In this document: positions 7,412-59,165 of the stretch, one piece after another | How the letters are laid out: each line of letters begins with the position of its first letter | How positions within the stretch are numbered: position 1 is the stretch's first letter | Assembly (NCBI GenBank): GCA_949130485.1 | Contig: OX422184.1 | Span: 19,360,824-19,424,823, forward strand | Length of the DNA stretch: 64,000 nt | Reading direction: 5' to 3' | From: Agelas oroides | Lineage: Eukaryota > Porifera > Demospongiae > Agelasida > Agelasidae | Made by a program: the position numbers and the translations under genes | The notes under the pieces: generated by a model | Seen by the model: the letters and a program-made list of their open reading frames with translations, nothing else | Databases searched by the model: none | What the model was told of the DNA's origin: nothing

Positions 7412-8981
7412 GTGATATTTGACAGTGTGCAAAAAATGCTGGTTGAACACCTTCTAAGCTGTCCACTGATAGGAGAAGTTCCTCCATCTCCGAAGTCTTT
7501 AAAGAGTGAGAGCAGAGCAAGGGTTACTAATGACAGGCAGCAGATTTTCCAAGCATTCAGAGTTCATGAAGGCGTAAGTTCTTAGGCTGGATTCCTATTA
7601 ATATTATTGTTACATATTATTTTGTTACACTGCAGATGACAGGGAAAGAACGAACTCAAACAATAAAGCAGGCCATCACATCCCTTTTCCAAGTCACCAA
7701 CCTTCCTGTCTTCAGTAGAGATGCTGGTTTTCAAGCCGAAATGCATGAGAAACAAATGGCATATGGCATTCTTTTAGAGAGTTGCAGTCTAATGGACATG
7801 ACCAGGGATAAAATTGCAAGAATGGTTGAAGTTTTCAAGTGTAATTTACGCAAATCTTCAACGGTAAGAAATAGTTTATCTCTGAATTTCAACAGTACCA
7901 TATTTTTAAAACTGGCACTCATGTAAGTCATGCAATCACATGCAATACTTTTCCCCCCAGTTCTCTGCAGTTGAAGACTTTGACCTTGCCAAGTCACTAG
8001 CTGGGGAACTTCTTGATGGATACATCACTGGTGGTATACGGCTAGCATGGATGATGGTCACCCGAATACCTCCCATGATTGCAGTTGAACCTGCAGCATA
8101 TAATCCACACACTACCATACTAGAGGGTGCCAATAACAGTGATGTTACACTGAAACGAACCATCTCAACACGACCGATACTGTACTTCAGCTATGAAGGT
8201 CAAGTAGCTGTTCAGGGCATCGTAACCATCCCCCCTACAAGGCCACAGTGGGTACTTGCCCAGGTTTCAAAGTTTAACCAAGGTATGCAGAGTCCTATGA
8301 ATGACGGCTGTAGCAATTGTTACCGGCTGCCTTCCAGACCAGCTTTTGTCACTTGCAACGTGGAGAGTTCTGAATAGAATTTCTCATATGATGTGTACCA
8401 CTGATGTAAATATGTAACCACAGCTTGTTTTATATATATCAAACAGAATAACACCATAAACAAAAGCCAAAAAATTGGGTGCTTTATTAAGAAATAGGTC
8501 AGATGCTTACACCAAGGACAGACCTCTAGGTGTACAAGAAGCCTGGTTGCTACCTGAGAGAACTTGTGTATGGTTTGATGTTGCTGTTTCCTATCGATCA
8601 ATATGAATTTTCTGCATACAATGATGTACAATATATTGGCATACATAACTTTGGTCATGGTACACAAACCTTTCTCTGCAAATTTCATCTTGCAAGCAAC
8701 AAAACTGGGGTGTAGGCCTGGAAATGAGGCCAGAAGTAATTTAATGACACATTAAAACTGACTTTCACCTATTTCTACAGTGGTTGATTCCCCAAAGCAT
8801 CCCTCATACCAGCAATACCAAGCAAAGCAGATCTTTACAGATGAAGATAAACATGGTCAAAAAGGTACACGTTTTATGTAATAATTTATACATCAAATGA
8901 ATTTGATCCATGCTTTCTTATGATTTTACAGTTGCTGCCCATCAATCATCATCTCAATGTAATCCTTATAGTGGCAAGTAA
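7412..8981 (+). CDS. Mieap-like gene copy A, 5'-truncated (exons 3-7)
   Basis: Exons 7412-7573, 7636-7863, 7961-8282, 8781-8864 and 8932-8981 all have AG/GT borders and compatible phases (0,0,0,1,1), ending in TAA at 8979-8981. They encode about 281 residues. The core runs from VIFDSVQKMLVEHL through QMAYGILLESC to GGIRLAWMMVTRIPPM and ILYFSYEGQVAVQGI, and the tail ends CNPYSGK. The pattern of helical region, W-x-MV-x-PPM and a Y-x-GxVAVxGI strand matches, from memory, the C-terminal Mieap/SPATA18 domain. That family acts in mitochondrial quality control in animals. Its partner in the other arm is copy E. Exons 1 and 2 of E have no counterpart here. The place where exon 2 should lie is occupied by the pogo relic, so A is probably a broken copy unless another first exon is used. 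AATAAA lies at 9065-9070. Confidence 0.6.
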
Positions 8982-9064
8982 GTTACTGTTGATATATCCT
9001 TTTAAAATTCAAATAACAACAAACTGCATTCTAGATGGTATACATGACCTAGTATGACAATTCA

Positions 9065-9070
9065 AATAAA
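9065..9070 (+). terminator. candidate polyadenylation signal of copy A
   Basis: AATAAA lies 84 bases after the stop codon of copy A. The equivalent signal sits at almost the same distance downstream of copy E (54473-54478, minus strand). Confidence 0.45.
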
Positions 9071-9613
9071 TTTTAAGTAAAAATAGAACAACAAACAGAA
9101 TAGACCAATTTATTAGTGAAAGTACTCAAAACAGGGTAACTGGCAGTATATACAAAATTATGAGTACAAACAAACAAACAAAACAATGACGAAAATGAGA
9201 AATTAAATAGAAGTTTAAACAAAAGAATCCTCAACAATAAATGATGCCCCAATAGTGCCAACAAGGAAGCAGTGTTTCTTCTCTGCACTATAACTCTCAC
9301 CCTCTGCAGGAGGTATAATATGTATGTATAAACTGCCATACACTTAGTTACCTGTTTCTAGTCACTTGTGTGCATGATGTACATGAATGGATTTTTAATG
9401 TATGTTTTATATGACAGGCAATGAACAACAATGTCATAAATAAATAGTTAGCTATCGTAGGTATCATTCAGAAGAGAATTTCATGTGTTTTGTGTGGATA
9501 GGACTCAGCAATAGTAAAGTGTACATATGTATACGTAAAATTTTCCATACCTAACAAGGTAATGAGTGAAATATAATTCCTGGCTGGTGCATTTCACCCA
9601 TTAAAACAACATG

Positions 9614-9734
9614 CTATGCAATATGTCCAATCTGTCCAGCGTAATATTTCATTGCTAGCTCTCCATTTGCCTTGCTAAGTGCCTTCTTGTCTTCTTTGGA
9701 AGTCACTTTGAAAGGTAACATCCTACAAAGAAAT
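9614..9734 (-). pseudogene. exon-like fragment, 35 codons, unidentified
   Basis: On the minus strand an acceptor TTTCTTTGTAG is followed by G and an open frame MLPFKVTSKEDKKALS continuing to KYYAGQIGHIA and a stop. The homologous stretch in the right arm (about 53890-54000) has indels that break this frame. It may be the last exon of an unrelated gene caught in the duplication, with one copy decayed. No family is recognised. Confidence 0.3.
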
Positions 9735-10240
9735 TTAGATGTTATGAGGCGAAAATAGAAGAAAGTGAAAAGGCCGGCAATCACCGGGAGTCGAACCCAA
9801 GACACCTCTGACTTGAGCCACGAGTGCTCTGCCATTGAGCTGTGTCAATCTGACAACCACCAGCTCCACAATCCTCTATATACTTCAGTCGCACACCTGG
9901 CAGCCACTCAGTATGTGCCGTCAGAACTCTGTTAAGGGGTTGACTGGAAAATTCTCTCCATCAGGAAAGAAACCCATGCTGAGTGTTGTTTTTTTTTTCA
10001 CTCTAAATGCTCAGAGCATCTTGCCTCACGCTGGAAATAAAGGCATTCAGTACCACCTGTGCAGTACATATAGAGGATTGTGGGGGTTGGTGGCTGTCCG
10101 GCTGTCATGGCTCAGTAGCAGAGCACTAGCAGCTCAAACCAGAGGTATCCTGGGTTCGATTCCCGGCGACCGCTGGCCTTCTCACTTTCCTCTATTTTTG
10201 CCTCGTAATCTAAATTCCTTTACTTCCAAACGTGAGGCAA
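9726..10240. mobile_element. inverted pair of tRNA-derived SINE heads
   Basis: The minus-strand half (about 9726-9900) and plus-strand half (about 10060-10240) each have a pol III promoter of tRNA type. The A-box-like segment is GCTCAATGGCAGAGCACT or GGCTCAGTAGCAGAGCACT. The B box is GGTTCGACTCC (reverse complement of about 9787-9797) or GGTTCGATTCC (10153-10163). The halves are reverse complements and extend to GCAAGATGCTCTGAGC on both sides of the centre. The same two-headed layout recurs at about 38860-39140 and 61385-61600. The tRNA fold is not intact, so this is a SINE and not a tRNA gene. Confidence 0.7.
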
Positions 10241-10585
10241 GATGCTCTGAGCAGTAACATCCTAGTTTGCCTACTCCTGTTTCGTCTACCCAATATTTTG
10301 CTTCTACTGTTACTTCTGTTTGGAATATTGTGATTAAACTTTAATTGGTTACTACAAGTTTAAATTGAGGTATTTGGGGGTACTCAGAAGAAGTTTGCTA
10401 ACAATGGAGTACTCTTTAGATCGATATAATAATGCACTTAGTAGTTGGGTAGGATATAGAAAATTGCAAACTTGTATGTATAGCTAGTATACTTCACAAC
10501 ATAGTAAAATGCACATTAAATTTGAGTAGGGTAGGACAATCATACTACTGCAAATTGAAGCACAAGTATATAATAGACAAAACGG

Positions 10586-11573
10586 CAACTGGAGTAGACG
10601 AAATGGCAGTAGACGAAACTGGAGTAGACGAAACAGGAGTAGACGAAACAGGAGTAGACACAACAGGAGTAGACACAACAGGAGTAGACACAACAGGAGT
10701 AGACGAAACAGGAGTAGACACAACAAGAGTAGACACAACAGGAGTAGACACAACAGGAGTAGATGCAACAGACGTAGACACAACAGGAGTAGACGAAACA
10801 GGAGTAGACACAACAGGAGTAGACGAAACAGGAGTAGACACAACAGGAGTAGACGAAACAGGAGTAGACACAACTGGAGTAGACGAAACAGGAGTAGACA
10901 CAACAGGAGTAGACACAACAGGAGTAGACACAACAGGAGTAGACACAACAGGAGTAGACGAAACAGGAGTAGACACAACAGGAGTAGACACAACAGGAGT
11001 AGACACAACAGGAGTAGACGAAACAGGAGTAGACGAAACAGGAGTAGACACAACAGGAGTAGACACAACAGGAGTAGACACAACAGGAGTAGACACAACA
11101 GGAGTAGACGAAACAGGAGTAGACACAACAGGAGTAGACACAACAGGAGTAGACACAACAGGAGTAGACGAAACAGGAGTAGACACAATAGGAGTAGACA
11201 CAACAGGAGTAGACACAACAGGAGTAGACGAAACAGGAGTAGACACAACAAGAGTAGACACAACAGGAGTAGACGAAACAGGAGTAGACGAAACAGGAGT
11301 AGACACAACAGGAGTAGACACAACAGGAGTAGACGAAACAGGAGTAGACACAACAGGAGTAGACGAAACAGGAGTAGACACAACTGGAGTAGACGAAACA
11401 GGAGTAGACACAACAGGAGTAGACACAACAAGAGTAGACACAACAGGAGTAGACACAACAGGAGTAGACAAAACAGGAGTAGACACAACAGGAGTAGACA
11501 CAACAGGAGTAGACACAACAGGAGTAGACACAACAGGAGTAGACACAACAGGAGTAGACACAACAGGAGTAGA
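10586..11573 (+). repeat. 15-bp minisatellite, about 65 units, upstream of copy B
   Basis: The unit is GGAGTAGACACAACA or GGAGTAGACGAAACA, differing mainly in ACA versus GAA. Because 15 is a multiple of three, several frames are open on both strands; on the sense strand it reads TGVDT/TGVDE. The first units (ACTGGAGTAGAC, ATGGCAGTAGAC) resemble those of the partner array at 52688-53270, whereas the body is far more uniform, which suggests later expansion. A short relic with four units lies at 12230-12270. It sits 5' of exon 2 of copy B, probably in intron 1 or in the promoter. Confidence 0.9.
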
Positions 11574-11694
11574 ACAAACTAAAACTCATTGTTGAATTGC
11601 AATGAAGATTTTTCTAGGTGAACACTTTGAACTCACCTGTTTTTGGAGGTAGGTGCACCACTTGTGCGCCAATTAAGATTTTTACTTGTATGTA

Positions 11695-12123
11695 CAGTAA
11701 AACCTCTCTTATCCGGGAAGCATGGGACCAGGGGGTGCCTATAACGTAGAAATGCCCTCAACTGAGAAACTTATATATTGTGTATAGTCATGTAGCCAAC
11801 ATACGTCATTAAATGTCATGAAGTAAGGCCACTCAAACTTTAATTTCCTGTTTGTGGTAAAAATGACGAGGTAACCATATTGGTGTCAATTGCACTAGCA
11901 AAAAGTAGACACTTAGCATACTTACAGAAGCCAGAATGGGGTGGGTGCAAACTGTGTAAGCATTGTGGTGACATGCTCAATACAGAGTTTACACAAGGAA
12001 CTCACCCCGGACCAGCCCACACAGCTGACCAGGAACAGGAAGGTAATTTTGTGTGGCCAAAGATAGTGCCTGGTAGTAGGAGGTGCCCATTAGTTAGAGG
12101 TCCAGATAAAGGAGATCTTGTTG
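11695..12123. mobile_element. pogo/Tigger-like MITE between TA dinucleotides
   Basis: The left end CAGTAAAACCTCTCTTATCC and right end (reverse complement) CAACAAGATCTCCTTTATCT are inverted repeats of the kind seen at Tigger elements. TA lies directly outside each end. It separates two partial copies of the copy B upstream region: 10470-11690 and 12124-12489 both align to the single D upstream region. The open frame at 11880-12128 lies inside it and is not supported as a gene. Confidence 0.6.
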
Positions 12124-12489
12124 TATAGCTAGTATACTTCACAACATAGTAAAGGAACATTACATTTGAGTAGGGCATGACATACTACTGCAAATAGAAG
12201 CAAAAGTATCACAAAATGGCAGTAGACAAACTGGAGTAGACAAAACAGGAGTATACAAAACAGGAGTAGATGAGCTATGTATAAATCCTTTGTAAGTCAC
12301 AAGTTTGAAAACTTATTGTTGAGTAAACATTTTTTTTTCTTTTTGGATGTGGGTAAAGTTCAAATTTACTTTTATAGAATAATATGGGCATGGTGTAAGT
12401 CACATTTCTAGGTAGTATGTGAACACTTTGAATCTCACCAGTCTTTGGAGGTAGGTGACTTGTGCGCTATTTAACATTTTTATTTCTAG
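12124..12489 (+). repeat. second, shortened copy of the copy B upstream region
   Basis: TAGCTAGTATACTTCACAAC occurs here and near 10480, followed by GAGTAGGGCATGACATACTA, a four-unit minisatellite relic and the block with GTGAACACTTTGAA and TTTGGAGGTAGGTG that also appears near 11620. D has only one copy of this region. B therefore has a local duplication in which one minisatellite shrank or the other expanded. It ends in the acceptor TATTTCTAG of exon 2. Confidence 0.7.
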
Positions 12490-14030
12490 GCAACTCAGCG
12501 AAGTGAAAGCTATCAGTCATCAAGTGGTTGGAAGCATCAATGCAACTCATGAAGATATCCAACTAATGTATGCTAGGTTCTTTGGAGGGGAAGCAGCAAG
12601 TGTAAAAAAGTTGCTGAAGGAGCAACTCGGATCAATTAGAGCAAGGAAAATGTTGAGTCAGATCTTCCAGGTATACTATTTTATGTGTACATACACACAC
12701 AATATATGTTATATGGACATGCAATTTTGTGAGTGGACACTGAATATGATGTGGCTATATTATGTATTATATAGGTAATATTTGTCAGTGTGCAAAGAAT
12801 GCTGGTGAAACGCCTAGGATCTAGGCTGCTAGGAGAGATTCAACAGTCCCACAAGTTTTCAGTGGTTGAGGGCAGAGAGATAGAAACTCGTGAAAAGATG
12901 AGAATTTTTCAAGCATTCAGAATTCAAAAAGGAGTAAGTTGTGGGTACCTGCAGTCAGTGTTATGCATCACTATCTATACATGGATGAACTCATCTTTCC
13001 TGTTTATTTTACTGCAGATGACAGGGAATGAACAAGCTCGATTAATTGAACAAGCTATTGCACCCCTTTTTCAAGTCACCGACCTCCTTATGTTCAGTAG
13101 GAATGCTGGGTTTCGAGCTGAAATGCGTGAGAAACAAATGGCATATGGCATTCTATTAGACAGTTGTGGCCTATTGGAGATGACTGAGGATGCAATTGCA
13201 ACAAAAGTTGAAGTTATCAAGTGTAGTTTACACAAATCCTCAAAGGTAAGAAATTGTTCATCGCTGAATTTCCGCAGTACCACATATTTCTAGTCTTGAC
13301 AGTCATGTAAGTCTTGCAATCACATGCAATACTTTTTTCTCCAGTTCTCTGCAGTTGAAGACTTTGAACTTGCCAACTCACTAGCTGGGGAACTTCTTGA
13401 TGCATACATCACTGGTGGAATACGACTAGCATGGATGATGGTCACCCGAATACCTCCCATGATTGCTGTTGAACCTACAGCATATAATCCACACACGACC
13501 ATACTAGAGGGTGCCAATAACAGTGACGTTCCACTGAAACGAACCATTTCTATACGACCGATAATGTACTTCAGCTATGAAGGACATGTAGCTGTTCAGG
13601 GCATCATAACCATCCTCCCTACAAGGGTATCTGCTCAGGCTTCAAATTTTAACCAAGGTACGTATGCAGCGTTCTATGAATGATGGTTTTAGCAGAGCAA
13701 TAGCCTTGTTACCAGGCTTCCAGCCCTAGCCTTTGTCATTTGAACTAGTGCAGAGTAACTATAGGATGACTCACGCATGATGTGTATCAGTAATGTAACC
13801 TAAACCACCTCCCTGATGTACATGAAGATATTAGCTTAACCACCCCCCCCCCCCCAAAAAAAATAATAAAAGGATAGCATTGGAATGCAACGGTATAGTA
13901 ATTATTCATTAATAGCAATCCTTGTGCATTTAGACTCAAATCAAACTTGACACTAGGTATAAGTTTGACTTCTCTCCTTTTCTTTCTACATGCAGGCAAC
14001 ACTATTGTTGGCAGTAAAAAAGTACATTAA
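12490..14030 (+). CDS. Mieap-like gene copy B (exons 2 to last)
   Basis: Exons 12490-12670, 12775-12933, 13018-13245, 13345-13657 and 13996-14030 have clean splice borders, for example CTAG|GCAACTC, CCAG|GTATAC and AACCAAG|GTACGT. The frame is intact over 304 residues plus stop. Exon 2 carries LMYARFFGGEAASVKKLLKE, a helical segment that corresponds to the start of the Mieap domain. The core ends IMYFSYEGHVAVQGI and a 35-base last exon adds GNTIVGSKKVH. This tail is conserved in copy D and differs from the A/E tail. Exon 2 begins with one base of a split codon, so a first exon ending in phase 2 must exist; it was not found. The role is inferred as Mieap-like, a mitochondrial quality-control factor. 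Confidence 0.65.
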
Positions 14031-14714
14031 CTAGGGGTACTGATAATAAGAACAGTCATGGTGGATTTCATATGTTGTCATGTGTATGTTGCATGCATTG
14101 TGTACCTGTCTATTAATATAGTTTGCCACACATGTGGCTGGTTTTAGTGTACTCACACTACGGTTGTTAATGCAGGATGGACACTGCTTGTAGGTAGAAA
14201 GAAAAAACGCTACCATCTTCCAGAAGTATTCCTGCACAGATTTTCTCCAGAAGCACATCCAAATCAAAGTGACCCTAGTGACTCCAGTGGCCTCTGACCA
14301 GAATTCTGATAATCTGATTCCCAGCCACGCAGTTGTTACATTCTCTTTTGATCCTTTGTGATTATAGCACAAAAATTGTTATAGAAAATAACTATGTATA
14401 AAGTTAATATACCATTCTCCCTCAATATTTCTTGAAAGAGTAGCTTATCTAATCTGATTCAGAACTGGATAATAACTAATGGATGCATAACTAACAGGCA
14501 AGTGTAGAATTAGCAAGCAGACAAGTGTCTGCATCGGCTCTTTGATTTTGTAGAGGAACATATCACCAGTTCATTGAACTGGTGACAAGAATTTAAATCA
14601 TAAATATCTTCCATCACCTCCCTTACCATTCTGTCTGGCTTGACAAACTATTATCTTTTTATTAGCAAGCAGACAAGTGTCTGCACCATGCAGTTGTTTG
14701 GTTTTTCATGAGAA
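14031..14714. repeat. intergenic DNA shared inverted with 50640-51060
   Basis: This stretch has no gene that I can see. It carries GCAAGCAGACAAGTGTCTGCA twice, at about 14515 and 14667, and a palindromic CACCAGTTCATTGAACTGGTG near 14559. The same blocks lie inverted near 50700-50850 and mark the inner end of the duplicated arms. Confidence 0.6.
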
Positions 14715-15215
14715 TTCATGCAGTGGGAGATGATACTTGAGTAAACTTTACTAGCCTCCCACAAAATGTTTTACAAGCACCACATTCTTTGGATAAGCAT
14801 ACGTACTGGTAAAGGATTCATGCAGTGGGAGATGATACTTGAGTAAACTTTACTAGCCCCCCACAAAATGTTTTACAAGCACCACATTCTTTGAATTAGC
14901 ATACGTACTGGTAAAGGATTCATGCAGTGGGAGATGATACTTGAGTAAACTTTACTAGCCTCCCACAAAATGTTTTACAAGCACCACATTCTTTGAATTA
15001 GCATACGTACTGGTAAAGGATTCATGCAGTGGGAGATGATACTTGAGTAAACTTTACTAGCCTCCCACAAAATGTTTTACAAGCACCACGTTCTTTGAAT
15101 TAGCATACGTACTGGTAAAAGATTCATGCAGTGGGAGATGATACTTGAGTAAACTTTACTAGCCTCCCACAAAATGTTTTACAAGCACCACAGTCTTTGA
15201 ATTAGCATAGGAAGG
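14715..15215 (+). repeat. 102-bp tandem repeat, five units
   Basis: TTCATGCAGTGGGAGATGAT starts at 14715, 14817, 14919, 15021 and 15123, an exact 102-base period. Units differ by only a few bases (for example TTTGGATAAGC versus TTTGAATTAGC). The array begins at the inner end of the left duplication arm and has no counterpart array at the right arm. Confidence 0.9.
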
Positions 15216-18422: not shown

Positions 18423-18828
18423 AAGAGACATGTTTCGTGACCCAATAGACCTTTATCCATTGTTACGTAATTATGACGTCTGGGGGAAAACAGTAGGCAT
18501 TAATTGGAATACGAAGCGATGGTGGTGAAGCGAACAGAGCGCGAAAACGTCAGTTCTCTGGAGCCCAGCGGCTGCAGACGAGGACAAAACCCGCGGAAAC
18601 TATTGCTAGGTAAGTTGCTTAGTTTATGTAGTTGAGTTTATATTTTTATGATAGGGTACTGAGAATGAAATTGCGCGATTTGTTAGACTGAGTGTTAGTT
18701 TTGTGGAGTTAGTTTGCTAAATCTGTTTGATGTGTTTCAACTTTGTACCGTGGATGTAACTTTGAACAAGATCTCGAGATTATAGAGCACTGAATCGGAC
18801 ACTTAAGCTCCATCCCACGCCTCGGTAT

Positions 18829-21670: not shown

Positions 21671-21679
21671 GTGATCACT

Positions 21680-26085: not shown

Positions 26086-26086
<1 letters not shown>

Positions 26087-35840: not shown

Positions 35841-38800
35841 TTAAACATTCCATTCTTGCTCATCTTCTAAAGCTTCATGTTCGCTTTCATCTGAGTCCAT
35901 TACTTTTCGGCGTGAGACGATGGCATCTTTAAGTGCTTTTCCTAACCCACTGTCATCAGGGCCAATTCGTTTCTGTGGAGCCGTTGACTTGAGACTTGTT
36001 TTAGCACGCTTAAGATCATTGACTTTAAATGGTAGATGTGGTCTACGGTCATGGGTGATGTCTACTGACTGTCCTTCACCACTGCAGACACTAGGATCGT
36101 TCGTAGAAGTTGGTTTCTTGAGAAGAGCTTGGGAGGCTGTTTCACTATTCACAGAGGGTTGCTGAAGGGTGGCTATAATCCCTTCAACAGCTACTTGACC
36201 TTCATAGCTGAAGAAAAGAATTGGCCGCAGTGCCACTGTGATGGTTTGTAGTGATGGATTATCTTCCTCATCATAGCAGGGTTCCAATTTGGTGGTGTGT
36301 GGATCAAATGCTGTGGGTTCAACAGCAATCATGGGAGGTATTCGGGTGACCATCATCCATGCTAGTCGTATTCCACCAGTGATGTATCCATCAAGAAGTT
36401 CCCCAGCTAATGACTTGGCAAGTTCAAAGTCTTCAACTGCAGAGAACTGAAGAATAGAGGATTGTGTCAGCTGGACTATCATCGCCAGTAGATAATGCAA
36501 TTTGTTAATAGTCAATGGATTTGACTGTAAGCTGGTGCCTGCCATCAGTTATAATTATGCTTGCAAGGTGGCACCTGTCAGCTTGGTTTCAGACACTCAT
36601 TGCAAGGCACGCTTTGAGGGCCAACTACATAATGTAAGGTTACATAACAGTTTCTCCACTTTACTAAGAGGCATGAAGTAAGTGTACAGGGTTGCTATCT
36701 CATGGTTTACCTAAGTCTGTAATAATGACATCGTCAGTAAGGCAATTCACCAAATTCCCATGGGTGGCATTCAAGACCAAAGCAGTAATCCCCAGGCTCA
36801 GTTAGGGGTTGTATGCCACATAATTGGTCCCCAAAGCTGCTTGAGCCTTGCAATGAGTGTTAGTTTTTTTTTTCTGTTTTGTTTTTTTCTCTCAACATTT
36901 TTATGCAGAAGCAGGGCACAGTCAAAATAGCAACTCAATGCTAGTGATACAAGACTGACCTGGAAATGAGAGAATATGTACTGAATTATAATTAATTAAT
37001 TAATTACACGTGCACACAGAGCAAGGTAAAAGAAAAAGATAAAAAATAGATTATGAGTATCAGCAAATTAGTAGAAGTATACAGCCAAAAAATCCTTATA
37101 ATATCTCTTTGCGGCAGCCAGTTGAGAAAGAAAGACTGAAACATAATTATCTTGCAAGCCTTGGATTGCCTTAGAAAAGGAGATGGGTTAATTGGGTGGG
37201 ATGATTAGTCATCTTTTTGCTGCTACACGTAGCTAAACCAGCTTCAGTAAAACTTCTTAGTGCCAAATTCACGATTTTTTATTATAAGTACCATCAAAGG
37301 GAGAAAGTGATAAGGACATGGAAGCAGTGATTAAATCTGAACTGTGAGCTAAATCGCATGCATTGATGATGCCTACCTTTAAAGATCCTTCTAATTCACG
37401 CTTTGTTTCAATGATATGTCTTTCAATTTCATTCTTGGTCAATTCCATTACACCACAACTCTCCAAAAGAATGCCAAATGCCGTCTGAATCTCGCGCATC
37501 TTAACGTGATAGTCAGTTTCATTACTGGAAGTGGAAATGTCTCTCACTCTGAAAATGGATTCGATGGCCTTCTTCATCGTTTGAGCTCGGTTTGTCCCTG
37601 CTATCTGCAATAAAGTAGGTAATACTAACACACATACATGACAATGACAAAGTTATTTGCAAACATAATGCTTTAAAAATGCAGGTATAGAGCATTTAAT
37701 TACATTAGCTATATAGCTTCCTGGCAGTATAAATGGCACATATTGCATGACTTACATGCATGGTACCCTACCTCTTGTAAGGACTCCTGTTTGTGTACTA
37801 TATATAATGCAAGCTGATAGATGAGTTTAGAGTATGCCACTGTGCAAAGGGAGCTATATTTGACTGGGGATAGGACAGGGTTGAATGTGACAATGAAAGG
37901 CATAACAAACAACGGACTCTGCAGTTGCAGACTTTTCCCAGTGCCGTGCATTCACATAGTATTGTATCCATAAGGTGTATACAGTACTTCTAGTGACTCT
38001 GATAGTGTGGGGTAAGTAACTCTGCATTTTATTACATGCATGCAATAAAAACGTACTCCTTTCCAAGTCTTGATTACTTGAAAGATTTGCTGCTTGTTCT
38101 CAGTGGACTGTACCTCACTCACTTGATCTGCAATCTGTGAAGACTTTTGAACTTCACCTACCAGTGCTGGTGATTTTAGAAGGTGTTCCACCAGTATTTG
38201 CCGTACGTTGTCATATATCGCCTAAAATGTACAATCATGTTATTGCACATCCTATAGTGCATATGTAATTTAATTATGCATTACTACCTGGAAAATTTGA
38301 TTCAGCAATACTCTTGCTTGAATTGATCCAAGTTTCTTTTTCAGCACACTTTTTACATTTGCAGCTTGCCCACTAAAGAAACTTTCAAACATCAGCTGGA
38401 CTTCTTCATGATTCATACGCTCTCGTCCAGTCACTTGGTGATCAGCAACTTGTGTTGCTCTACGGATTTCCCTAAGAAAAAGCACACACTTATACACTTA
38501 CGTAAGAAATTCTACTCACAACATATTCATGATTCTACCATCAACTATCTATTCAAAACCTAATGCTTGAATGTTATTATAGAAAAGTTACCCACAAGTT
38601 AGAGTTAAACTAATGCTACAGATTATTTTATATTACAGAAAAAAGTACAGCTGCAGGTACAGATGATTTGCTCCTGAATTTCACTTGGTATTGCACCAGG
38701 TAAGGTTTGAAATTGGGGAATTCAATTAAATTTGCATGCATTGTTGGGAGTGTAGTAATTTACAAAAACCTCGAGACTGTACACTTTGTGAATGAAGGCA

Positions 38801-40439
38801 TATTTGATGTTGTGTTGAAAGCAAAAAAAAAAATGTAACAAATTAAGAAACGAACTATTGAACCTGGCGATCCTAGCATGAGTTGCCAGTGATTTATCGC
38901 TAAGTTATAGCCACCAGACAACCACCAGTTCTCACACAGTCTTTTATAAGTACAGTACATACTGAGTAGCTGCTGGGTATGCCATGCACTGAAGCATTCA
39001 GTACCACACATTTTTTCAATACATATAGGGGAATGTGAGGGCTGGTGGATATCTAGTGGTTGCAGATTTGTGGAGGAGCACTGGTAGCTCCAGCCAGGAA
39101 ACATGGTTTTGATTCCCAGCTTTTCTCTATTTTGCCTCATTTTGAGCTGTTTATGAAAAAGCACCTACAAAAGCCTCTTTTATTAAGTTTTTTTGCAGCC
39201 AATATTTTGGAAGTGTGAAGTTGAAGAAAAGCATCAATATATGGATATCATGCTTTATTGAAACATTGAGGCTTCAGAGTACATAATTATATGTAATCCA
39301 TTCAGTCAGTCAATTCTGTAGTTGAGTTGCGTATGGCAGATGAAATAGTCATTTTCTGTGCCAATCCACAGCAATGATACACACAGGCATCATACTCCAC
39401 AATGACAGATATTGCAAGACAAGTCATACATCTAAGAGCTGTATGGTTGCTTCAGATGAAAACATTAGTCTCTACCCAAAGCACATAGAAAGATACACAC
39501 TTTGTGCTGAGAGCAGTATCTAACAGCAATCCATCCAAGACCCATCTGTATCAATTACATGTATTAGGCAGTCAAGAATGCCAAGAATGCTCACCTTTAC
39601 TTAGTCAAACATACCACACTTGGTATGTGATGCAGATGAATATGTCAGGCTTCAATGGACAAACTATTGCATTCACTTCACACAACACTGAGCATGCACG
39701 CAATATGTTCGCTCACTTGAAACCCTGATTACAAAGCCAGTGGTTAGTCAAATCAAAACCAATTTTATGCTATAAGAATTGCCAAGAGATCTGTTTAAGG
39801 TGCACATAAAGTATGTGACATAACGCTAGCATTTAAGGAAGCACTGCATACTTTTTGCACGCTATGTTAGTACTTTGACATTTAATGACAGTCATTACTG
39901 CTGCTAGGGTTAGCAATGTCAGATTTCCAAACCGTGGTGTGCTGAATCTAAAGTTTTCGCATTCGTCTGGTAGTCTCAGTTTATGCTACGTACGCAAGAT
40001 GACTATCTGCGAGAACATGGATATTTATGTCCATGTGGTGGCATGTGCAATATAGCTATGAGACTTCGCACGCAAATTTATGCCACTCTTGTGCACACCT
40101 TCGCCTTGTTTTATGTTCAAGGTCTTTCACGTTTTTGATTTTTTTTAGTTCGTCGCATTGACCTTTAGTTCGTCGTATTTTTTTCCCCTTGCCCTAGTTC
40201 ATCGGGTTCTTCGTTTGCTTTTAGCGACGATTGTAACTCGTCGCGTTTCTCTCTTTCCTCTTCACTTCCTGTAGTTTCTGCTCCAACGTTCTACACTCTT
40301 GCTCCTTAATATCTTCTAAATATTTTCTCCACTGGCTTGACTCTGTTGTTGGGTCTGTCGCATATAAACGATTACTCCAGTTGATGAACAAATGTATACA
40401 AATAGACCAATAAACTAACCCTCCTTGTCCTTGTCCCAT
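35841..40439 (-). CDS. Mieap-like gene copy C, diverged, damaged first exon
   Basis: Minus-strand exons 38471-38288, 38221-38057, 37604-37377 and 36446-35841 have good borders, keep frame, and line up with exons 2-5 of E. Exon 5 does not splice after the core but reads on to a longer tail with FKVNDLKRAKTSLK and an acidic end DEQEWNV. The helical exon reads LMFESFFSGQAANVKSVLKK. A first exon is recognisable at 40439-40131 by alignment to the E coiled coil (TLEQKLQEV; DELQSSLKANEE), but it needs at least two frame changes, so either the gene is a pseudogene or translation starts later. Exons 2-4 are much diverged from the other copies, while the first 135 bases of exon 5 are almost identical to them. 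Confidence 0.5.
36583..36864. mobile_element. foldback MITE in intron 4 of copy C
   Basis: ACACTCATTGCAAGGC on the left and GCCTTGCAATGAGTGT on the right, with further inner pairing (CCAACTACATAATG with CACATAATTGG). About 280 bases, no coding content. Confidence 0.7.
38472..40130. other. intron 1 of copy C with inverted SINE pair
   Basis: Intronic by alignment to copy E. It holds the SINE pair at about 38860-39140 and otherwise A/T-rich DNA. No separate gene is supported; the frame at 39504-39728 has no splice signals or motif. Confidence 0.4.
38860..39140. mobile_element. inverted pair of tRNA-derived SINE heads, decayed
   Basis: The minus half (GCTAAGTTATAGCCACCAGA and CAACCACCAG) and plus half (GGCTGGTGGATATCTAGTGG, GGTTTTGATTCCCAGC as a degraded B box, then TCTCTATTTTGCCTCAT) face each other across about 120 bases containing ACTGAAGCATTCAGTACCAC. 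Layout matches 9726-10240. Confidence 0.6.
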
Positions 40440-45186: not shown

Positions 45187-45194
45187 CTGCACAT

Positions 45195-46640: not shown

Positions 46641-46644
46641 GTGT

Positions 46645-51088: not shown

Positions 51089-52522
51089 TTAATGTACTTT
51101 TTTACTGCCAACAATTGTGTTGCCTGCATGTAGAAAGAAAAGGACAGAAGTCAACGTAGAAATTTCCTAGTGTCACAAGTTTGACTTGAGTCTAAATGCA
51201 CAAGGATTGATTAATGAATAATCACTATAGCTACCAATGCTTTCCTTTTCTGTTTAAGCTGATGTCTTCATGACATACATCAGGGAAGTGGTTTAGGTTA
51301 CATTACTGATACACATCATTCGTAGAACTCTGCATACGTACCTTGGTTAAAATTTGAAGCCTGAGCAGGTACCCTTATAGGGAGGATGGTTATGATGCCC
51401 TGAACAGCTACATGTCCTTCATAGCTGAAGTACAGTATCGGTCGTATAGAAATGGTTCGTTTCAGTGGAACATCACTGTTATTGGTACCCTCTAGTATGG
51501 TCGTGTGTGGATTATATGTTGTCGGTTCAACAGCAATCATGGGAGGTATTCGGGTGACCATCATCCATGCTAGTCTTATTCCACCAGTGATGTATGCATC
51601 AAGAAGTTCCCCAGCTAATGACTTGGCAAGTTCAAAGTCTTCAACTGGAGAGAACTGGGGGAAAAAGTATTGCATGTGATTGCGTGACTTACATCAGTTT
51701 TTATCGAGATTAGAAATTGCATGATGTCAGAAATATGTGGTACTAGCGATGAACAATTTCTTACCTTTGAGAATTTGTGTAAACTACACTTGATAACTTC
51801 AAATTTTTGGGCAAATGCATCCTCAGTCATCTCCAATAGGCCACAACTGTCTAGTAGAATGCCATATGCCATTTGTTTCTCACGCATTTCTGCTCGAAAA
51901 CCAGCATCCCTACTGCGCATAAGGTCAGTGACTTGAAAAAGGGGTGCAATAGCTTGATCAATTAATCGAGCTTGTTCCTTCCCTGTCATCTGCAGTAAAC
52001 AGGAAACATGCATTCATGGATGTATAGATAGTGATGCATAGCTAATTATCACTAACTGTAGGTAGCCACAAGAACTTACTCCTTGTTGAATTCTGAATGC
52101 TTGAATAATTCTCATCTTTTCACGAGTTTCTATCTCTCTGCCCTCAACCACTGAAAACTTCTGGTGGGACTGTTGAATCTCTCCTAGCAGCCTAGATCCT
52201 AGGTGTTCCACCAGCATTCTTTGTACACTGTCAAATATTACCTATATAATACATATAGCCACATCATATCAGTGTCCACTCATAAAATTGCATGTCCATA
52301 TAACATATATTGTGTGTGTATGTACACATAAAATAGTATACCTGGAAGATCTGACTCAACATTTTCCTTGCTCTAATCGATCCAAGTTGCTCCTTCAGCA
52401 ATGTTTTCACACTTGCTGTTTCCCCTCCAAAGAAACTCGCATACATCATCTGGATATCTTCATGACTTCTATTGCTGCTTCCAACCACTTGGTGACCAAT
52501 AGCTTTCACTTCGCTGAGTTGC
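51089..52522 (-). CDS. Mieap-like gene copy D (exons 2 to last)
   Basis: Minus-strand exons are 52522-52342, 52241-52080, 51989-51765, 51654-51342 and 51123-51089. Frame is open throughout (304 residues plus stop). Segments include MMYASFFGGETASVKTLLKE, VIFDSVQRMLVEHLGSRLLG, QMAYGILLDSCGLLEMTEDA and GGIRLAWMMVTRIPPM, and the short tail GNTIVGSKKVH identical to B. Exon 4 is one codon shorter than in B and exon 3 one longer. The first exon, ending in phase 2, was not found between exon 2 and the end of copy E, although the tandem array at 52688-53270 lies there. Conserved splice borders and frame in both B and D suggest function. The Mieap assignment is by pattern memory. Confidence 0.65.
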
Positions 52523-52687
52523 CTAGAAATAAAAATGTTAAATAGCGCACAAGTCGCCTACCTCCAAAGACAGGTGAGATTCAAAGTGTTCACATACTAC
52601 CTAGAAAAATCTACCTTGCAATTCAAAAATGAGTTTTGAAACTTGTGACTTCCAAAGGGTTTACACATAGTTTGTATACTCCTGTTT

Positions 52688-53270
52688 CGTCTACTCAGTT
52701 GCATCTACTCCAGTTTCATCTACTCGAGTTTTGTCTACTCCAGTTTCGTCTATTCCAGTTTCGTCTACTCCAGTTTCGTCTACTCCAGTTTCGTCTACTC
52801 CAGTTTCATCTACTCCAGTTTCGTCTACTTCAGTTTCGTCTACTGCCGTTTCGTCTACTCCAGTTTCGTCTACTCCAGTTTCGTCTACTCCAGTTTCGTC
52901 TACTCCAGTTTCATCTACTCCAGTTTCGTCTACTCCAGTTTCGTCTACTGCCGTTTCGTCTACTCCAGTTTTGTCTACTGCCATTTCGTCTACTCCAGTT
53001 TCGTCTACTGCCGTTTCGTCTACTCCAGTTTTGTCTACTGCCATTTCGTCTACTCCAGTTTCGTATACTGCCGTTTCGTCTACTCCAGTTTCATCTACTC
53101 CAGTTTTGTCTACTGCCATTTCGTCTACTCCAGTTTCATCTACTCCAGTTTCTACTGCTGTTTCGTCTACTCCAGTTTTGTCTACTCCAGTTTCTACTGC
53201 TGTTTTGTCTACTCCAGTTTTGTCTACTGCCATTTTGTCTACACCAGTTTCATCTACTCCAATTTCATCT
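52688..53270 (-). repeat. 15-bp minisatellite upstream of copy D, about 39 units
   Basis: Plus-strand unit CTACTCCAGTTTCGT, sense-strand GTAGACGAAACTGGA. More variable than the B array: ACTGGA, ACGGCA and ATGGCA versions are mixed, and two units are shortened near 53148 and 53190. Reads TGVDE/MAVDK on the sense strand. Flanks (GCTTCTATTTGCAGTAGTAT) match those of the B array. Confidence 0.9.
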
Positions 53271-53744
53271 ACTGCCGTTTATTTATTAAATATTTGTGCT
53301 TCTATTTGCAGTAGTATGTCATACCCTACTCAAATTTAATGTGCATTTTACTATGTTGTGAAGTATACTAGCTAAGTTTACAACTTTCTAAATCCTACTC
53401 AACTACTAAGTGAATTAATTTATCTAAAGAGTACTCCATTGTTCCCAAGCTTCTCCTGAATACCCCCAAATACTTGAAACAAAGGAATGTAAACTTGTGA
53501 GTTTTATCAGTGAATAATAGAAGTAAAATATTGGGCAGACGAAACAGCAGTAGGCAAACTAGGATGTTACATTCCAAAGTTCATATTATATGTCTTATCA
53601 CCATTCATTGCCGTTGTGTTTTATCTATACCTCCTACCTGTCACCCTGTAAGGCTTTCATTTTGTTTTTGTAATGCAGGGCCTTACTGAAATTCAGCTAC
53701 GGAGCTGAGGAAAACACCCTGTAAAGACAAGAATTTATTTATCC

Positions 53745-53745
53745 G

Positions 53746-53790
<45 letters not shown>

Positions 53791-53827
53791 ATCTATCTAT
53801 CTATCTATCTATCTATATCTATATCTA

Positions 53828-53880
<53 letters not shown>

Positions 53881-53888
53881 GTCTATCT
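53745..53888 (+). repeat. CTAT tetranucleotide microsatellite
   Basis: About 35 CTAT units with a few ATATCT interruptions. Not present at the matching point of the left arm. Confidence 0.95.
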
Positions 53889-54472
53889 AAAGTGACTTCC
53901 AAAAGAAGACAGGAAGACACTTAGCAAGGCGAATGGAGAGTTAGCAACAAAATATTACACTGGACAGATTGGAGAGACGTAGACATATTGCATAGCATGT
54001 TGCTTTAATGGGTGAAATGCACCAGCCAGGAATTATATATAGATTTCTCTCATCACCTTGTTAGGAAGGGAAAATTTACGTATACGTATGTACACTTTAC
54101 TGTTTCTGAGTCCTATCCACACTAAACAATAATCTCGAAATTCTCTTCTGAATGATACCTACGATAGCTAACTATTTATTTATGACATTGTTGTTCATTG
54201 CCTGTCATATAAAGCATGCATTTAAAAATCCATGCATGTACATCATGCACACAAGTGATTAGGAACAGGTAACTAAGTGTATGGCAGTTTTTTATAGCTA
54301 CTACAAACACATTATATACCTCCTATTTAATTTTTCATTTCTTGTCATTTTGTACTTTGTTTGTTTGTTTGTTTGTTTGTTTGTTTGTACTCATAATTTT
54401 GTGTATACTGCCAGTTACTCTGTTTTGAGTACTTTCACAAATAAATTAGTCTATTCTGTTTGTTGCTCTATT

Positions 54473-54478
54473 TTTATT
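54473..54478 (-). terminator. candidate polyadenylation signal of copy E
   Basis: AATAAA on the minus strand, 83 bases beyond the stop codon of copy E, at the same distance as in copy A. Confidence 0.45.
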
Positions 54479-54560
54479 TAAAATTCATTTGATTTGTTAT
54501 ACTAGGTCATGTATACCATCTAGAATGCAGTTTGTTATTTGAATATATATCAGCAGTAAC

Positions 54561-57500
54561 TTACTTGCCACTATGAAGATTACATTGAGATGATGATTGA
54601 CGGGCAGCAACTGTAAAATCATAAGAAACCATGATCACATTTGTATAATGTATAAATTATTACATAAAACGTGTACCTTTTTGACCGTGTTTATCTTTAT
54701 TCGTAAAAGTCTGCTTTGCTTGGTATGGCTGTGATGAAGGATGCTTTGGGGAATCAGCAACTGTAGAAATAGTAGAAACTCAGTTTCCAACGTGACGTTA
54801 AAAACCTCTAGCCTCATTTTCAGGCCTATACCCCAGTTTTGTTGCTTGCAAGATGAAATTTGCAGAGAAAGGTTTGTCACACAATGTGTACCATGACCAA
54901 AGTTATGTATGCCAATATATTGTACATCATTGTAAGCTGAAAATTCATATTGATCGATAGCAAACAGCAGCAAACAACCCATACACAAGTTCTCTCAGGT
55001 GAATGGAAACAGCTAGCAACCAGGCTTCTTGTACGGCTGCTGTCCTTGGTGTCTGGCTTAACAAAAAGAATCCACTTTTTTAAAAGAACCCAATTTTTTT
55101 GCTTTTGCTTATATATGGTGTTATTGTTTGTAATATATAAAGCAAGCTGTGGTTACATATTTACATAAGTGGTACACATCATGTGAGAAATTCTATTCAG
55201 AACTTTCCACACTGATAGTGACAAAAGCTGGTCTGAAAGGCAGCCGGTAACAATTGCTACAGCCGTCATTCATAGGGTTCTGCATACCTTGGTTAAACTT
55301 TGAAACCTGGGCAAGTACCCACTGAGGCCTTGTAGGGGGGATGGTTACAATGCCCTGAACAGCTACTTGACCTTCATAGCTGAAGTACAGTATAGGTCGT
55401 ATAGAAATGGTTGGTTTTGATGTAACATCACTGTTTTTGGCACCCTCTAGTGTGGTCGTGTGTGGATTATATGCTGTAGGTTCAACAGCAATCATGGGAG
55501 GTATTCGGGTGACCATCATCCATGCTAGTCGTATTCCACCAGTGATGTATGCATCAAGAAGTTCCCCAGCTAGTGACTTGGCAAGGTCAAAGTCTTCAAC
55601 TGCAGAGAACTGGGGGAAAAAGTATTGCATGTGATTGCGTGACTTACATGAGTGTCAGTTTTTCAAACTATGTGATACTGTTGAAATTCAGCAATGAACT
55701 ATTTCTTACCGTTGAGGATTTGTGTAAACTACACTTGATAACTTCAACCATTCTTGCAATTGCATCCCCGGTCATGTCCATTAGATTGCGACTATCTAAT
55801 AGAATGCCATATGCCATTTGCTTCTCCCGCATCTCAGCTTGAAAACCAGCATCTCTGCTGAAGACAAGAAGGTTAGTGACTTGGAAAAGGGATGTGATGG
55901 CCTGTTTTATCGTTTCAGCTCGTTCTTTCCCTGTCATCTGCAGTGTAACAAAATAAATTTATGATGTGTAACAATATTATTAACAGGAATCCAGGCAAAG
56001 AACTTACGCCTTCCTGAATTCTGAATGCTTGGAAAATTTGCTGCCTGTCATTAGTGACACTTGCTCTGCTCTCACTCTTTAAAGACTTTGGAGATGGAGG
56101 GACTTCTCCTATCAGTGGACATCTTATAATGTAGTCAACCAACATTTCTTGCACACTGTCAAATATCACCTATACAATGTGTTTGTGTACACTCATTCTA
56201 TTGTACATTCTTTTCAGTGTCCTGTCACAAACTTGCATATTAGCCAATTTTACGCGAAATTGAATAGAATGCAATTAACCTCAAAAGATTATGTTCACAT
56301 GATGTCAATTTTTACAGAGCTTTTTTCAAAGGATTCAAGCATCAGGGAAGTCTAGGTGGAATTTGGGGCCTCCTGACCCATTTTATCATTAGTGATATGG
56401 GGACCCCCCAGCACCCAAATTAGTAGTCGTATGGAATATAGGGTCCTCCCGAATGAAATGAGCTGTTTCTAAGACATAGGGCACTCAATCTTGACTTCAT
56501 TGATTTGAGCTGGCCGAGGTAAGCCTTGGGTGTTATAAAAGCAAAAGCACAGTGTAAAAAATACCTAGTGTAAAAAATACCTAGTCGTCTAAATGGCGAA
56601 GGAAAGCACGTAAATGCCAGTAGAGGAAGATGCAGTGAAAACAAATATACGACCTCTCCATTGAATCCTCCACATACAGATACAGACTACAAGCACAAGC
56701 AGAGGCTGAAAAAGTGCATTAAGGTTTTCTCAGTGGATGGAGGGAAGTTGTACAGAGAGAAATGCAAAGGGAGCTCTGCTTGGTAGGAAACAAAGGAGGA
56801 AAATAATCCCCCTTTCCTCCATCCCCCCTCTCCTACAATCCCTCTTCCAACTCCCACCTCCTCCCACACATGCACCATCAATACAGCAGCCTTCTTGGGG
56901 TCAGCCTTTAGTATCACGCTGGTTACCTTATGCAGCATCCACAGTCGGGCTCATCCAGGCATGCAGAAACAAAACATTGTCTGAAATTACTTCCAGATAG
57001 GCCACTGCAGTTTAATTTCCTATTTCTCATCCAAGAAGTTGTCAGAATTCAATGCAGGCGGGCGGTTGAAAATACAAACATGGCAACAAAAACAGCATGT
57101 GATCTTGTTCACTCTTCTGCCCACCTGGACGATGAGCTGTAAATATGAAAGGCAATAAAGAGTGCCCTTGGCATGCACGAGGTTAGTTTGGCATCACCTA
57201 GATTGAAGTACAGGAGGCAAGCAAAGGATCGGCAACACTAGACTTGCACAAAGTTACTGTACCTTGTCTCATAAGCAATGCAGAAATAATGCAGTAATTT
57301 GTTTTCTGCAGAGTGAGTTGCAAGAAATTGATATGTGTGAGAAACAGGAAATTTTCTTGCTTTGGCCATAATGAGATGTACAAGATTATACGGTCGCAGG
57401 TTGTTGCATTGGTTTTAGATTTTCATTTGAGTACAGATATATGTCAGGGGTACCAAACCATTGAAAGATGCCCATATCACCTAAGTTCTGGGACTCCCAA

Positions 57501-59165
57501 TTAAAATAGGACCCCATATAACTAGTGGTTTCATATACAGGATTTTTTCCTGGGGGGGGTGCACCAACTTGGGGTTTGGAGATTTTACAAAAATTCTGGC
57601 TAGCTATGCTCTGTCCCTTGAGGGCTTCTGGACTGACTTATTTTAGTTGGGGGGAAAGCCCAAGCTAACCACAGACCAGACACAAAGTTTGAGCTATTTG
57701 CCATGAGCTGTGATAACACTTGGCCATATTGGTCAAAGCATAATATATACACACCCAACATGTGAGCGGTATGTTAATTATACCACATGGCAATTAAGAA
57801 AGCCAACTAGTATCCTGTAAATTCTTCCTTTGCTTGAAACCTCAGTTGTAGAGCTTGAGTCACGTGACTTAACATTTGATTTTAGTTGGACCACTCACAT
57901 GTATGTATATATGTATATAAATAATATTTTTATTTTTGTGGGGGGGTGGGTTAAGCAGTATACCTGGAAGATCTGACTCAACATCTTTCCTGCTCTAATT
58001 GATCCAAGTCGCTCCTTCAACACTTTTTTTACACTTGCTGTTTCCCCTCCAAAGAACTTATTATACATCATGTGGACATCTTCATGACTTGCATTGCCAC
58101 TTCCAACCACTTGATGACCGATAGCTTGCAGTTGTCGCATTGCACCAAGTTGCCTGGATAGTAATATGAATACATCAATGCATCAGTAGATCAATAGACA
58201 CCTCATACAACACAAGTCGATTCTCGTTTTCAGTATAATTATACATGTTACGTACATGCATGGCATAATTATATAAGTGGTGTGTTTGATTTTGGCCTCA
58301 ATTCTTTCATCAGTCAATTTTGTTAGAAACTACTTCAGTTCTAGCACATGAGAACTTTATGCAAAACTTTACTATTTTGGAAAGAACTCTGCATACTACT
58401 GCCTAGCACACATGGAGGGTAGCCTTCAAGGAGGAAATTGGCAAGGCAAAATATTATGATAGTGACAATGAAAGTTTCTACCCTAAGATGTATTTTGGAC
58501 TCTGACCCAGCCTTGTGCAACTTCCTATTGAGTCGAAAATGTAGCATGAACAGACTGCTCATGGAAAGTGGTTGATTGCCTTGATAGATCACTCCATAGT
58601 TATGATTGCCACACACCATTTTGTGTACTAGAGAGTCCAAATCAAGACTCGAGGTTGAAATAAATAAGGTCAGACATCAGCTGTAATTGTTGGGCTCAAT
58701 AAAGCAGTACGCGCTGATATGTTACAACATGTGAGCGGTATGTTACCACTGTATATAAATTACACACATGCAAAACGAATGCAACTAAAGTGGCCAAAAT
58801 GTGGATGAAGTACCCTAAACATTTTTACAGTGTGATTAAGGGCTCCTGGCACACATCCACAGCTAGTGCGAAACGATACTGTATTGTCACGGGAATACCA
58901 TTACTTCTACAAGCTAATTTTTATTTTGTTGCATCATGCAGTTCACTCACGTTTGTGCATATTGAAGTTCGTCTTTCACTTTGTCGCGCTCTTTCGATTT
59001 TCGCTCATAAAGAGTCTTCAGTTTGTCGCGCTCTTTCTCGTTAGCCTCGAGCCTCCGCTGCAGACCGTCGTGTTCCAATGCATTGTCCTTTAACTTTGCA
59101 TCCAAATCTCGTAGTTCCTGCTCCAATGCCTTGTAACTTTGTTCTAAAAGCCGTCTCGATTCCAT
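54561..59165 (-). CDS. complete Mieap-like gene copy E (7 exons)
   Basis: Exons on minus are 59165-58951, 58153-57964, 56169-56008, 55937-55710, 55609-55288, 54760-54677 and 54610-54561, in total 1251 bases, 416 residues plus stop. All borders are GT-AG and the phases agree (2,0,0,0,1,1). Exon 1 (ATG at 59163-59165) is a coiled coil: LLEQSYKALEQELRDLDAKL followed by EANEKERDKLKTLYERKSKE. Exon 2 begins TQLGAMRQLQAIGHQVVG and has MMYNKFFGGETASVKKVLKE. The core has QMAYGILLDS, GGIRLAWMMVTRIPPM and ILYFSYEGQVAVQGI. The tail ends QSSSQCNLHSGK. A coiled coil followed by this domain is the layout of SPATA18/Mieap, which in vertebrates acts at mitochondria; 416 residues is somewhat shorter than the vertebrate protein. 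This is the best-preserved member of the cluster. Confidence 0.7.
56210..57890. other. intron 2 of copy E, no separate gene
   Basis: By alignment this is intronic to copy E and homologous to 2140-2275 and 4090-5310 inverted. Short frames at 56687-57142 and 57198-57504 lie on shared repeat DNA and are not conserved between arms. Confidence 0.45.
58154..58950. other. intron 1 of copy E
   Basis: The intron between the coiled-coil exon and exon 2. No repeat or motif of note. The frame at 58341-58640 is unsupported. Confidence 0.45.

What the first reader, a model, noticed from the sequence alone, without database searches (positions are those of the whole stretch)
7412..59165. Cluster of five Mieap-like genes plus a relic
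Vertebrates have a single SPATA18/Mieap. Here there are five gene copies and one relic within 52 kb, one complete with coiled coil and core domain. Expansion of a mitochondrial quality-control family in an invertebrate would be notable. Family assignment is by remembered pattern, not by search.
Basis: partly seen in the sequence, partly recalled or inferred. Interest (0 to 1): 0.7.

Follow-up and report, generated by a model that had tools for sequence, protein, structure and literature searches.

The report
Divergent Mieap-like gene array, recently duplicated
The window holds five real copies of an animal gene family distantly related to the mitochondrial quality-control protein Mieap, and they are only part of a larger, repeatedly duplicated array; large Mieap families are already known from bivalve molluscs, so this is a variant of a known theme, and what the copies do is untested.

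Summary
The cluster is real. Five sets of exons (A, B, C, D, E) lie at 7.4-59.2 kb. E is a complete 403-aa gene. A is also complete (415 aa), but its first two exons lie 9.6 and 6.3 kb before the window. For B and D no exon 1 was found. C has a decayed exon 1, the best candidate for the "relic". The window cuts a 12-copy array of about 190 kb, and the 259-Mb genome holds at least 28 related loci. Copies arose by inverted and tandem segmental duplication, and gene conversion has homogenised the start of exon 5. The five copies miss Pfam's MIEAP cut-off (15.6-17.4 against 27 bits). However, profiles made from this genome's own Pfam-detected MIEAP loci recover them far above shuffled controls, so remote homology is well supported. 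They are probably not SPATA18 orthologues: the genome has one strong canonical MIEAP locus, on another contig. A large Mieap expansion is already published for bivalves. Most likely these are fast-evolving proteins pairing a charged N-terminus with a Mieap-type C-terminal domain. That they bind acidic mitochondrial lipids or act in mitochondria is inferred by analogy only.

The parts
7412..7573 (+). Copy A exon 3 (exons 1-2 lie upstream of the window)
   Evidence: tblastn; splice model
7636..7863 (+). Copy A exon 4
7961..8377 (+). Copy A exon 5 with stop
12490..12670 (+). Copy B exon 2 (no exon 1 found)
12775..12933 (+). Copy B exon 3
13018..13245 (+). Copy B exon 4
13345..13683 (+). Copy B exon 5 with stop
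40190..40439 (-). Decayed exon 1 of copy C (frameshifted, donor changed; limits approximate); likely the 'relic'
   Evidence: alignment with two sister copies
38288..38471 (-). Copy C exon 2
38057..38221 (-). Copy C exon 3
37377..37604 (-). Copy C exon 4
35841..36446 (-). Copy C exon 5 with a longer tail and stop; its first 43-53 codons are the gene-conversion tract
52342..52522 (-). Copy D exon 2 (no exon 1 found)
52080..52241 (-). Copy D exon 3
51765..51989 (-). Copy D exon 4
51316..51654 (-). Copy D exon 5 with stop
58951..59165 (-). Copy E exon 1 (ATG; highly charged N-terminus)
57964..58153 (-). Copy E exon 2
56008..56169 (-). Copy E exon 3
55710..55937 (-). Copy E exon 4
55193..55609 (-). 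Copy E exon 5 with stop
7342..9186 (.). Inverted-duplication block carrying A; partner 54369-56239 (88.0%)
   Evidence: blastn
54369..56239 (.). Inverted-duplication block carrying the 3' exons of E
   Evidence: blastn
12405..13685 (.). Inverted-duplication block carrying B; partner 51314-52607, which carries D (91.0%)
   Evidence: blastn
1..15181 (.). Part of the second unit of a tandem segmental duplication (main blocks 98.0-99.5% identical to C2:19.274-19.290 Mb)
   Evidence: blastn of the 230-kb region

Best explanation
This is part of a lineage-specific, fast-evolving multigene array encoding divergent relatives of Mieap. Shown: a five-exon gene with a highly charged N-terminal exon and a C-terminal domain remotely homologous to the MIEAP domain; multiplication by tandem and inverted segmental duplication; purifying selection on the A/E pair; and gene conversion across the first 43-53 codons of exon 5, which keeps that core nearly identical while exons 2-4 and the tails diverge. 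Inferred: the C-terminal domain still does what that of Mieap is proposed to do, attaching to acidic mitochondrial phospholipids (phosphatidic acid, cardiolipin), while the N-terminal segment self-associates. Copies differing in upstream exons and tails would then be variants of one mitochondrial lipid or stress-response device. B, D and C, without an intact exon 1 found, would act from other starts or be decaying.
For: Exon sets and splice models. PF16026 in 5 of 5 spliced window copies (15.6-17.4 bits, E 0.0046-0.017), in paralogue H (23.5 bits, E 6.3e-5, profile 45-144) and in a family consensus (E 7.6e-5, profile 89-193); 0 of 3 reversed controls. An HMM from four loci that the PF16026 search found scores 8 of 8 family rows at 27.8-45.3 bits, best of 1,800 shuffled decoys 5.5 (1,390 received a score); hhalign 97.5% probability, best of 60 column shuffles 2.2%. 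Duplications. Gene conversion: C against A/B/D/E, dS 0.08-0.17 in the tract and 0.45-1.66 elsewhere; permutations reaching the observed segment 0, 0, 18 and 191 of 10,000 for C/B, C/D, C/E, C/A. A/E dN/dS 0.31, p 2.5e-7. Lipid/condensate model of Mieap: PMC10845071 (passages).
Against: No window copy passes the Pfam cut-off, and at E<=1 the genome-wide PF16026 search listed only G of the array (20.2 bits; 8 candidates scored). A query with the C2:19.81 locus matched none of the array at E<=0.01. A profile of the whole core against recalled human SPATA18 was no better than shuffles, and the window exon-5 HMM gave human -0.6 bits. The heptad test for a coiled coil was not significant for E (488 of 2,000 shuffles as good), A (234) or F (191); only the sister copy of C passed (3). 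No R/S clusters like those reported for Mieap. No solved structure matched and no fold could be predicted. Nothing shows expression, localisation or lipid binding. B/D selection is only modestly significant (p 0.013), and pairs with the window's C show none (p 0.38, 0.55).
Confidence: 0.6

Rival explanations
1. The copies are true SPATA18/Mieap co-orthologues, a straightforward expansion of the vertebrate gene.
For: PF16026 is the family matched at the core; Mieap orthologues are reported across metazoans (PMC10845071).
Against: A separate canonical MIEAP locus on C18 scores 75.5 bits; window copies miss the cut-off; the window family is a 100/100 clade apart from C18 plus human, though that outer split is weak (74/77) and the tree tool warns of long branches.
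Confidence: 0.1
2. The domain is Mieap-derived but the family has been recruited to innate immunity or stress recognition and no longer acts on mitochondria; diversity outside the converted core is what matters.
For: Array growth with near-identical recent units; high divergence outside the tract; C against its sister Cp in exons 2-4, 19 replacement to 1 silent change; the bivalve Mieap expansion is reported together with stress and immune families (PMC8382680, passages).
Against: The 19:1 count is not significant (p 0.0996), C/Cpp shows nothing (p 0.55) and the sisters Cp/Cpp over all codons show constraint instead (11 silent, 13 replacement, p 0.013); no receptor or death domain was listed by Pfam for the five copies at E<=10; no expression data.
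Confidence: 0.2
3. Part of the array is an assembly artefact: the near-identical units offset by 84-88 kb are two haplotypes laid in tandem.
For: Main blocks at 19.250-19.290 Mb are 98.0-99.5% identical to the next unit, a divergence that alleles could also show.
Against: No N gaps in the 230 kb. It cannot explain A/B against E/D (inverted, 79-91% identical) or C, D and E as separate genes.
Confidence: 0.2
4. Most copies are pseudogenes and only E and A are active.
For: C exon 1 decayed; no exon 1 found for B and D; pairs with the window's C show no significant constraint (p 0.38, 0.55).
Against: B, D and C keep their other frames open; the B/D silent-to-replacement ratio departs from neutrality, p 0.013.
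Confidence: 0.25

Closest known systems
Mieap / SPATA18 (Pfam PF16026 MIEAP)
   Same: Remote homology over the C-terminal half (an A-W segment, mostly a PP motif, then a conserved R/W-P strand and a G), collinear with profile positions 89-193 in the family consensus; a charged N-terminal segment before it in E and A.
   Different: Below Pfam's cut-off; own clade; about 400 aa against 538 in the recalled human sequence; no R/S-rich clusters; a canonical locus exists separately in the same genome.
Bivalve Mieap expansion (orthogroup OG24, PMC8382680, passages)
   Same: Large multigene expansion of Mieap-type genes in animals.
   Different: Whether the clades correspond could not be tested.
C20 loci of this genome (ten), with the C4, C21, C23 and C2:19.81 loci
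   Same: Same last-exon pattern; C20 loci are 25-39% identical to the window family.
   Different: Separate branches; C21 and C2:19.81 pass the Pfam cut-off; the sequences from two C20 loci that were scanned gave no Pfam MIEAP hit.

Membership tests
Pfam PF16026 MIEAP | Whole-protein score above the curated cut-off of 27 bits | tested here: not met
   5 of 5 spliced window copies score 15.6-17.4 bits; paralogue H 23.5; family consensus 23.2
Pfam PF16026 MIEAP | Detectable homology to accepted family members | tested here: met
   HMM of four PF16026-found loci (C18, C21 and C2:19.81 over the cut-off on rescan, C4 below it): 8 of 8 family rows at 27.8-45.3 bits against 5.5 for the best decoy; without C4 20.0-40.8 against 4.8; hhalign 97.5% and 96.2%
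SPATA18/Mieap orthologue | Groups with SPATA18 rather than outside the genome's canonical gene | tested here: inconclusive
   Tree of 15 rows: window clade 100/100; C18 with recalled human 74/77, long branches; C18 is by far the best Pfam match
SPATA18/Mieap orthologue | Coiled coil N-terminal to the domain | tested here: inconclusive
   Weak matches to coiled-coil families; own heptad test not significant for E, A, F, significant for the sister copy of C
SPATA18/Mieap orthologue | Disordered regions with R/S clusters (reported in PMC10845071) | tested here: not met
   RS/SR pairs: 4 in 403 aa (E), 5 in 415 aa (A); a count only, no disorder prediction was run
SPATA18/Mieap orthologue | Mitochondrial condensates, lipid binding, quality-control function | not testable with these tools
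   Needs expression and cell assays
SPATA18/Mieap orthologue | Same fold | not tested
   Structure queue full at every try; no PDB relative by sequence

The most novel reading that the evidence does not exclude
The animal carries a second, previously unrecognised Mieap-type clade organised as a diversifying array. Gene conversion holds the lipid-facing core exon constant while upstream exons and tails diversify, giving a repertoire of mitochondrial-membrane sensors or effectors used in stress or immunity.
Probability: 0.15. Interest if true: 0.6.

Novelty: new variant of a known kind. Interest (0 to 1): 0.35.

Why it matters
It suggests that Mieap-type domains extend beyond what Pfam's model accepts, that one genome can hold a single strong canonical Mieap locus beside at least 27 other related loci, most of them in clusters on two contigs, and that gene conversion can keep one exon uniform within such an array. 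If several animal groups expanded this family independently, as bivalves did, it becomes a candidate stress or immune family worth testing outside vertebrates.

Tried and rejected
Tried without result: profile of the whole core against recalled human SPATA18 by hhalign (0.07% probability, below the best of 100 shuffles at 7.64%); PDB sequence search (one chance-level hit, E 7); NCBIfam (only coiled-coil-like SMC and similar matches); comparison of the splice acceptor before the last exon across loci (too many candidate AG sites to decide, not used); positive selection between C copies (19:1 in exons 2-4 for C/Cp, p 0.0996; C/Cpp 14:2, p 0.55; Cp/Cpp 11:3, p 1.0); gene conversion for A/B and A/D (2,547 and 3,293 of 10,000, not significant), while E/D (56) and E/B (0) are. 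The recent pairs A/Ap (1 silent, 2 replacement) and B/Bp (0 and 6) are too close to judge. B's exon-2 reading frame alone gave a weak FliG_N match (E 0.0042) that was not listed for the spliced protein. Structure prediction never started: the queue was full in 6 of 6 tries.

Rows dropped before counts: near-identical sister copies Ap, Bp, Cp and Cpp were left out of the family profiles and the tree. Of 28 loci, sequence was read for the 12 of the C2 array, H, C18, C2:19.81, C21, C4 and two of ten on C20; C23 and eight C20 loci are known from search rows only.

Full report
WHAT IS THERE. The window is G000:C2:19360824-19424823 of a 259.3-Mb genome in 141 contigs. That it is an animal is inferred from content such as a THAP-domain element (Pfam E 2.1e-12); the species was not identified. 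tblastn with seven exon peptides finds five sets of exons. Splice models have GT/AG borders and open frames: E 403 aa; A 415 aa; B and D 301 aa without exon 1; C 393 aa without a usable exon 1. A's first two exons lie 9.6 and 6.3 kb before the window start, and the intron to exon 3 is 13.5 kb.

THE ARRAY IS LARGER. The exon-5 peptide of E finds 17 matches in the genome: 12 at C2:19.240-19.429 Mb, one at 20.41 Mb (H), four on C20. Searches with PF16026, with three relatives and with H bring the total to at least 28 loci: 12 in the array, H, C2:19.81, ten on C20, and one each on C4, C21, C23 and C18. The tool warns that such counts are lower bounds. Within the 230 kb read, the main blocks at 19.250-19.290 Mb match 19.337-19.376 Mb at 98.0-99.5%, and blocks at 19.240-19.250 Mb match at 96.3-97.7%: a tandem duplication of a C-F-A-B unit. 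The A/B block also matches the E/D block in inverted orientation at 79-91% (in the window 88.0% over 7342-9186 against 56239-54369). The near-identical units could in principle be two haplotypes; the inverted pair could hardly be.

FAMILY. Single exons give weak PF16026 matches (E 0.0079 and 0.0085 for 2 of 10 pieces). Spliced, 5 of 5 window copies match PF16026 at 15.6-17.4 bits against a cut-off of 27; the scan at E<=10 also lists weak, mostly coiled-coil-like families at the N-terminus of E and A, and one other weak family in D. H gives 23.5 bits (E 6.3e-5) and a family consensus 23.2 bits (E 7.6e-5). Reversed copies of three gave 0 of 3 MIEAP hits, but other families at E 0.022-0.077, so the single-copy E-values alone are marginal. 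The decisive evidence comes from the same genome: the PF16026 search at E<=1 found six matches, two of them in one gene, three over the cut-off: C18 (75.5 bits), C21 (32.9) and C2:19.81 (29.4); below it C4 (19.5) and, from the array itself, G (20.2); none of the five window copies was listed (8 candidates scored). An HMM made from C18, C21, C2:19.81 and C4, all taken from that search, scores 8 of 8 family rows at 27.8-45.3 bits; of 1,800 shuffled decoys 1,390 received a score, best 5.5. Without C4 the rows score 20.0-40.8 against 4.8. Profile against profile: 97.5% (E 8.2e-12) with C4 and 96.2% (E 2.4e-9) without; best of 60 column shuffles 2.2%. With two C20 loci added it is 98.5%; those two had been found through the window family, so this figure is partly circular. 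The link therefore runs through intermediates and profiles. In a 15-row tree of about 95 residues the window family is a 100/100 clade; C18 and human group at only 74/77, both branches are long, and the tool warns that such joins may be false.

EVOLUTION. A/E: 47.5 silent and 57.5 replacement differences, dN/dS 0.31, p 2.5e-7 against neutrality; B/D: 19.5 and 32.5, dN/dS 0.46, p 0.013; A/B p 0.007; pairs with the window's C are not significant (C/Cp p 0.38, C/Cpp p 0.55), while its sisters Cp/Cpp show constraint (11 silent, 13 replacement, p 0.013). C is 60-66% identical in DNA to A, B, D and E in exons 2-4, and 56-61% in the rest of exon 5, but 93-95% in the first 53 codons of exon 5. There dS is 0.08-0.17, against 0.45-1.66 elsewhere. 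Counting only codons that keep their amino acid, the tract stands out in permutation for C/B (0 of 10,000), C/D (0), C/E (18) and C/A (191), and also for E/B (0) and E/D (56); A/B (2,547) and A/D (3,293) are not significant (eight pairs tested, not independent). Because silent sites are affected, selection on the protein alone does not explain it; gene conversion is the simplest cause.

HOW IT MAY WORK. Shown: gene structure, duplication, conversion, constraint on A/E, remote homology. Inferred: function. PMC10845071 (passages) reports that human Mieap forms mitochondrial condensates, proposes that its C-terminal hydrophobic region binds phosphatidic acid or cardiolipin-related lipids, and finds orthologues in metazoans but not fungi. 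If the domain keeps that property, these proteins would attach to mitochondrial membranes, with the N-terminal segment for self-association. A coiled coil is not established: the heptad test was not significant in E, A or F (488, 234 and 191 of 2,000 shuffles as good) and was in the sister copy of C (3 of 2,000).

WHAT IS KNOWN. PMC8382680 (passages) reports a Mieap orthogroup with 53.1 genes per bivalve genome against 0.6 in the other taxa sampled. PMC5549309 (passages) reports the MIEAP Pfam domain over-represented among mussel gill genes. PMC11036304 (passages) reports the protein in Dreissena proteomes. Seven searches showed no other report of such an expansion in the titles and abstract openings listed; they cover only the held open-licence library, searches were loose any-of-terms searches of which only the top 20 were seen, and one search showed 25 of 88. 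That vertebrates have one SPATA18 is recalled, not tested.

VERDICT.

Noticed in passing
window 10586-11577 and 52669-53273: 15-base minisatellite (about 66 and 41 copies) between the paired genes in both inverted arms. In the first arm frames of 346-380 aa are open on both strands, so openness is no sign of coding. It lies just upstream of exon 2 of B and of D, where no exon 1 was found.
   Followed up: partly
window 62424-63851 (-): 475-aa open frame with a weak HSP70 match (E 6.9e-4, below cut-off), HSPA12-like by recall, next to the array; an HSP70 orthogroup is expanded alongside Mieap in bivalves (PMC8382680, passages).
   Followed up: no
window 5412-6549: Inverted repeat of 527 bases, arms 99.4% identical with an 84-base spacer; also present in the sister unit: a recent foldback-like element.
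   Followed up: no
window 1110-1925, 18766-19818, 44766-45131: Transposon remains: DDE_1, THAP plus HTH_Tnp_4, and hAT dimerisation domain.
   Followed up: no
window 32273-33572: Two head-to-head, nearly identical open frames resembling, by recall, the GIY-YIG end of a Penelope-like element; no Pfam match for the one scanned.
   Followed up: no
window 21751-23680: 186-base tandem repeat, 10.5 copies; related arrays in the sister units in both orientations.
   Followed up: no
G000:C20:3.43-3.48 and 6.76-6.89 Mb: Ten related last exons, all on one strand (68-100% identical to the C20 query), eight of them within 6.76-6.89 Mb. The locus L030 shows two similar middle exons in a row.
   Followed up: partly
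G000:C2:19342187 (F) and 19428547 (G): In F and G the last listed exon runs into a donor-like GTAAGTA followed by a stop, so these two genes probably have a further exon that the window copies lack.
   Followed up: no
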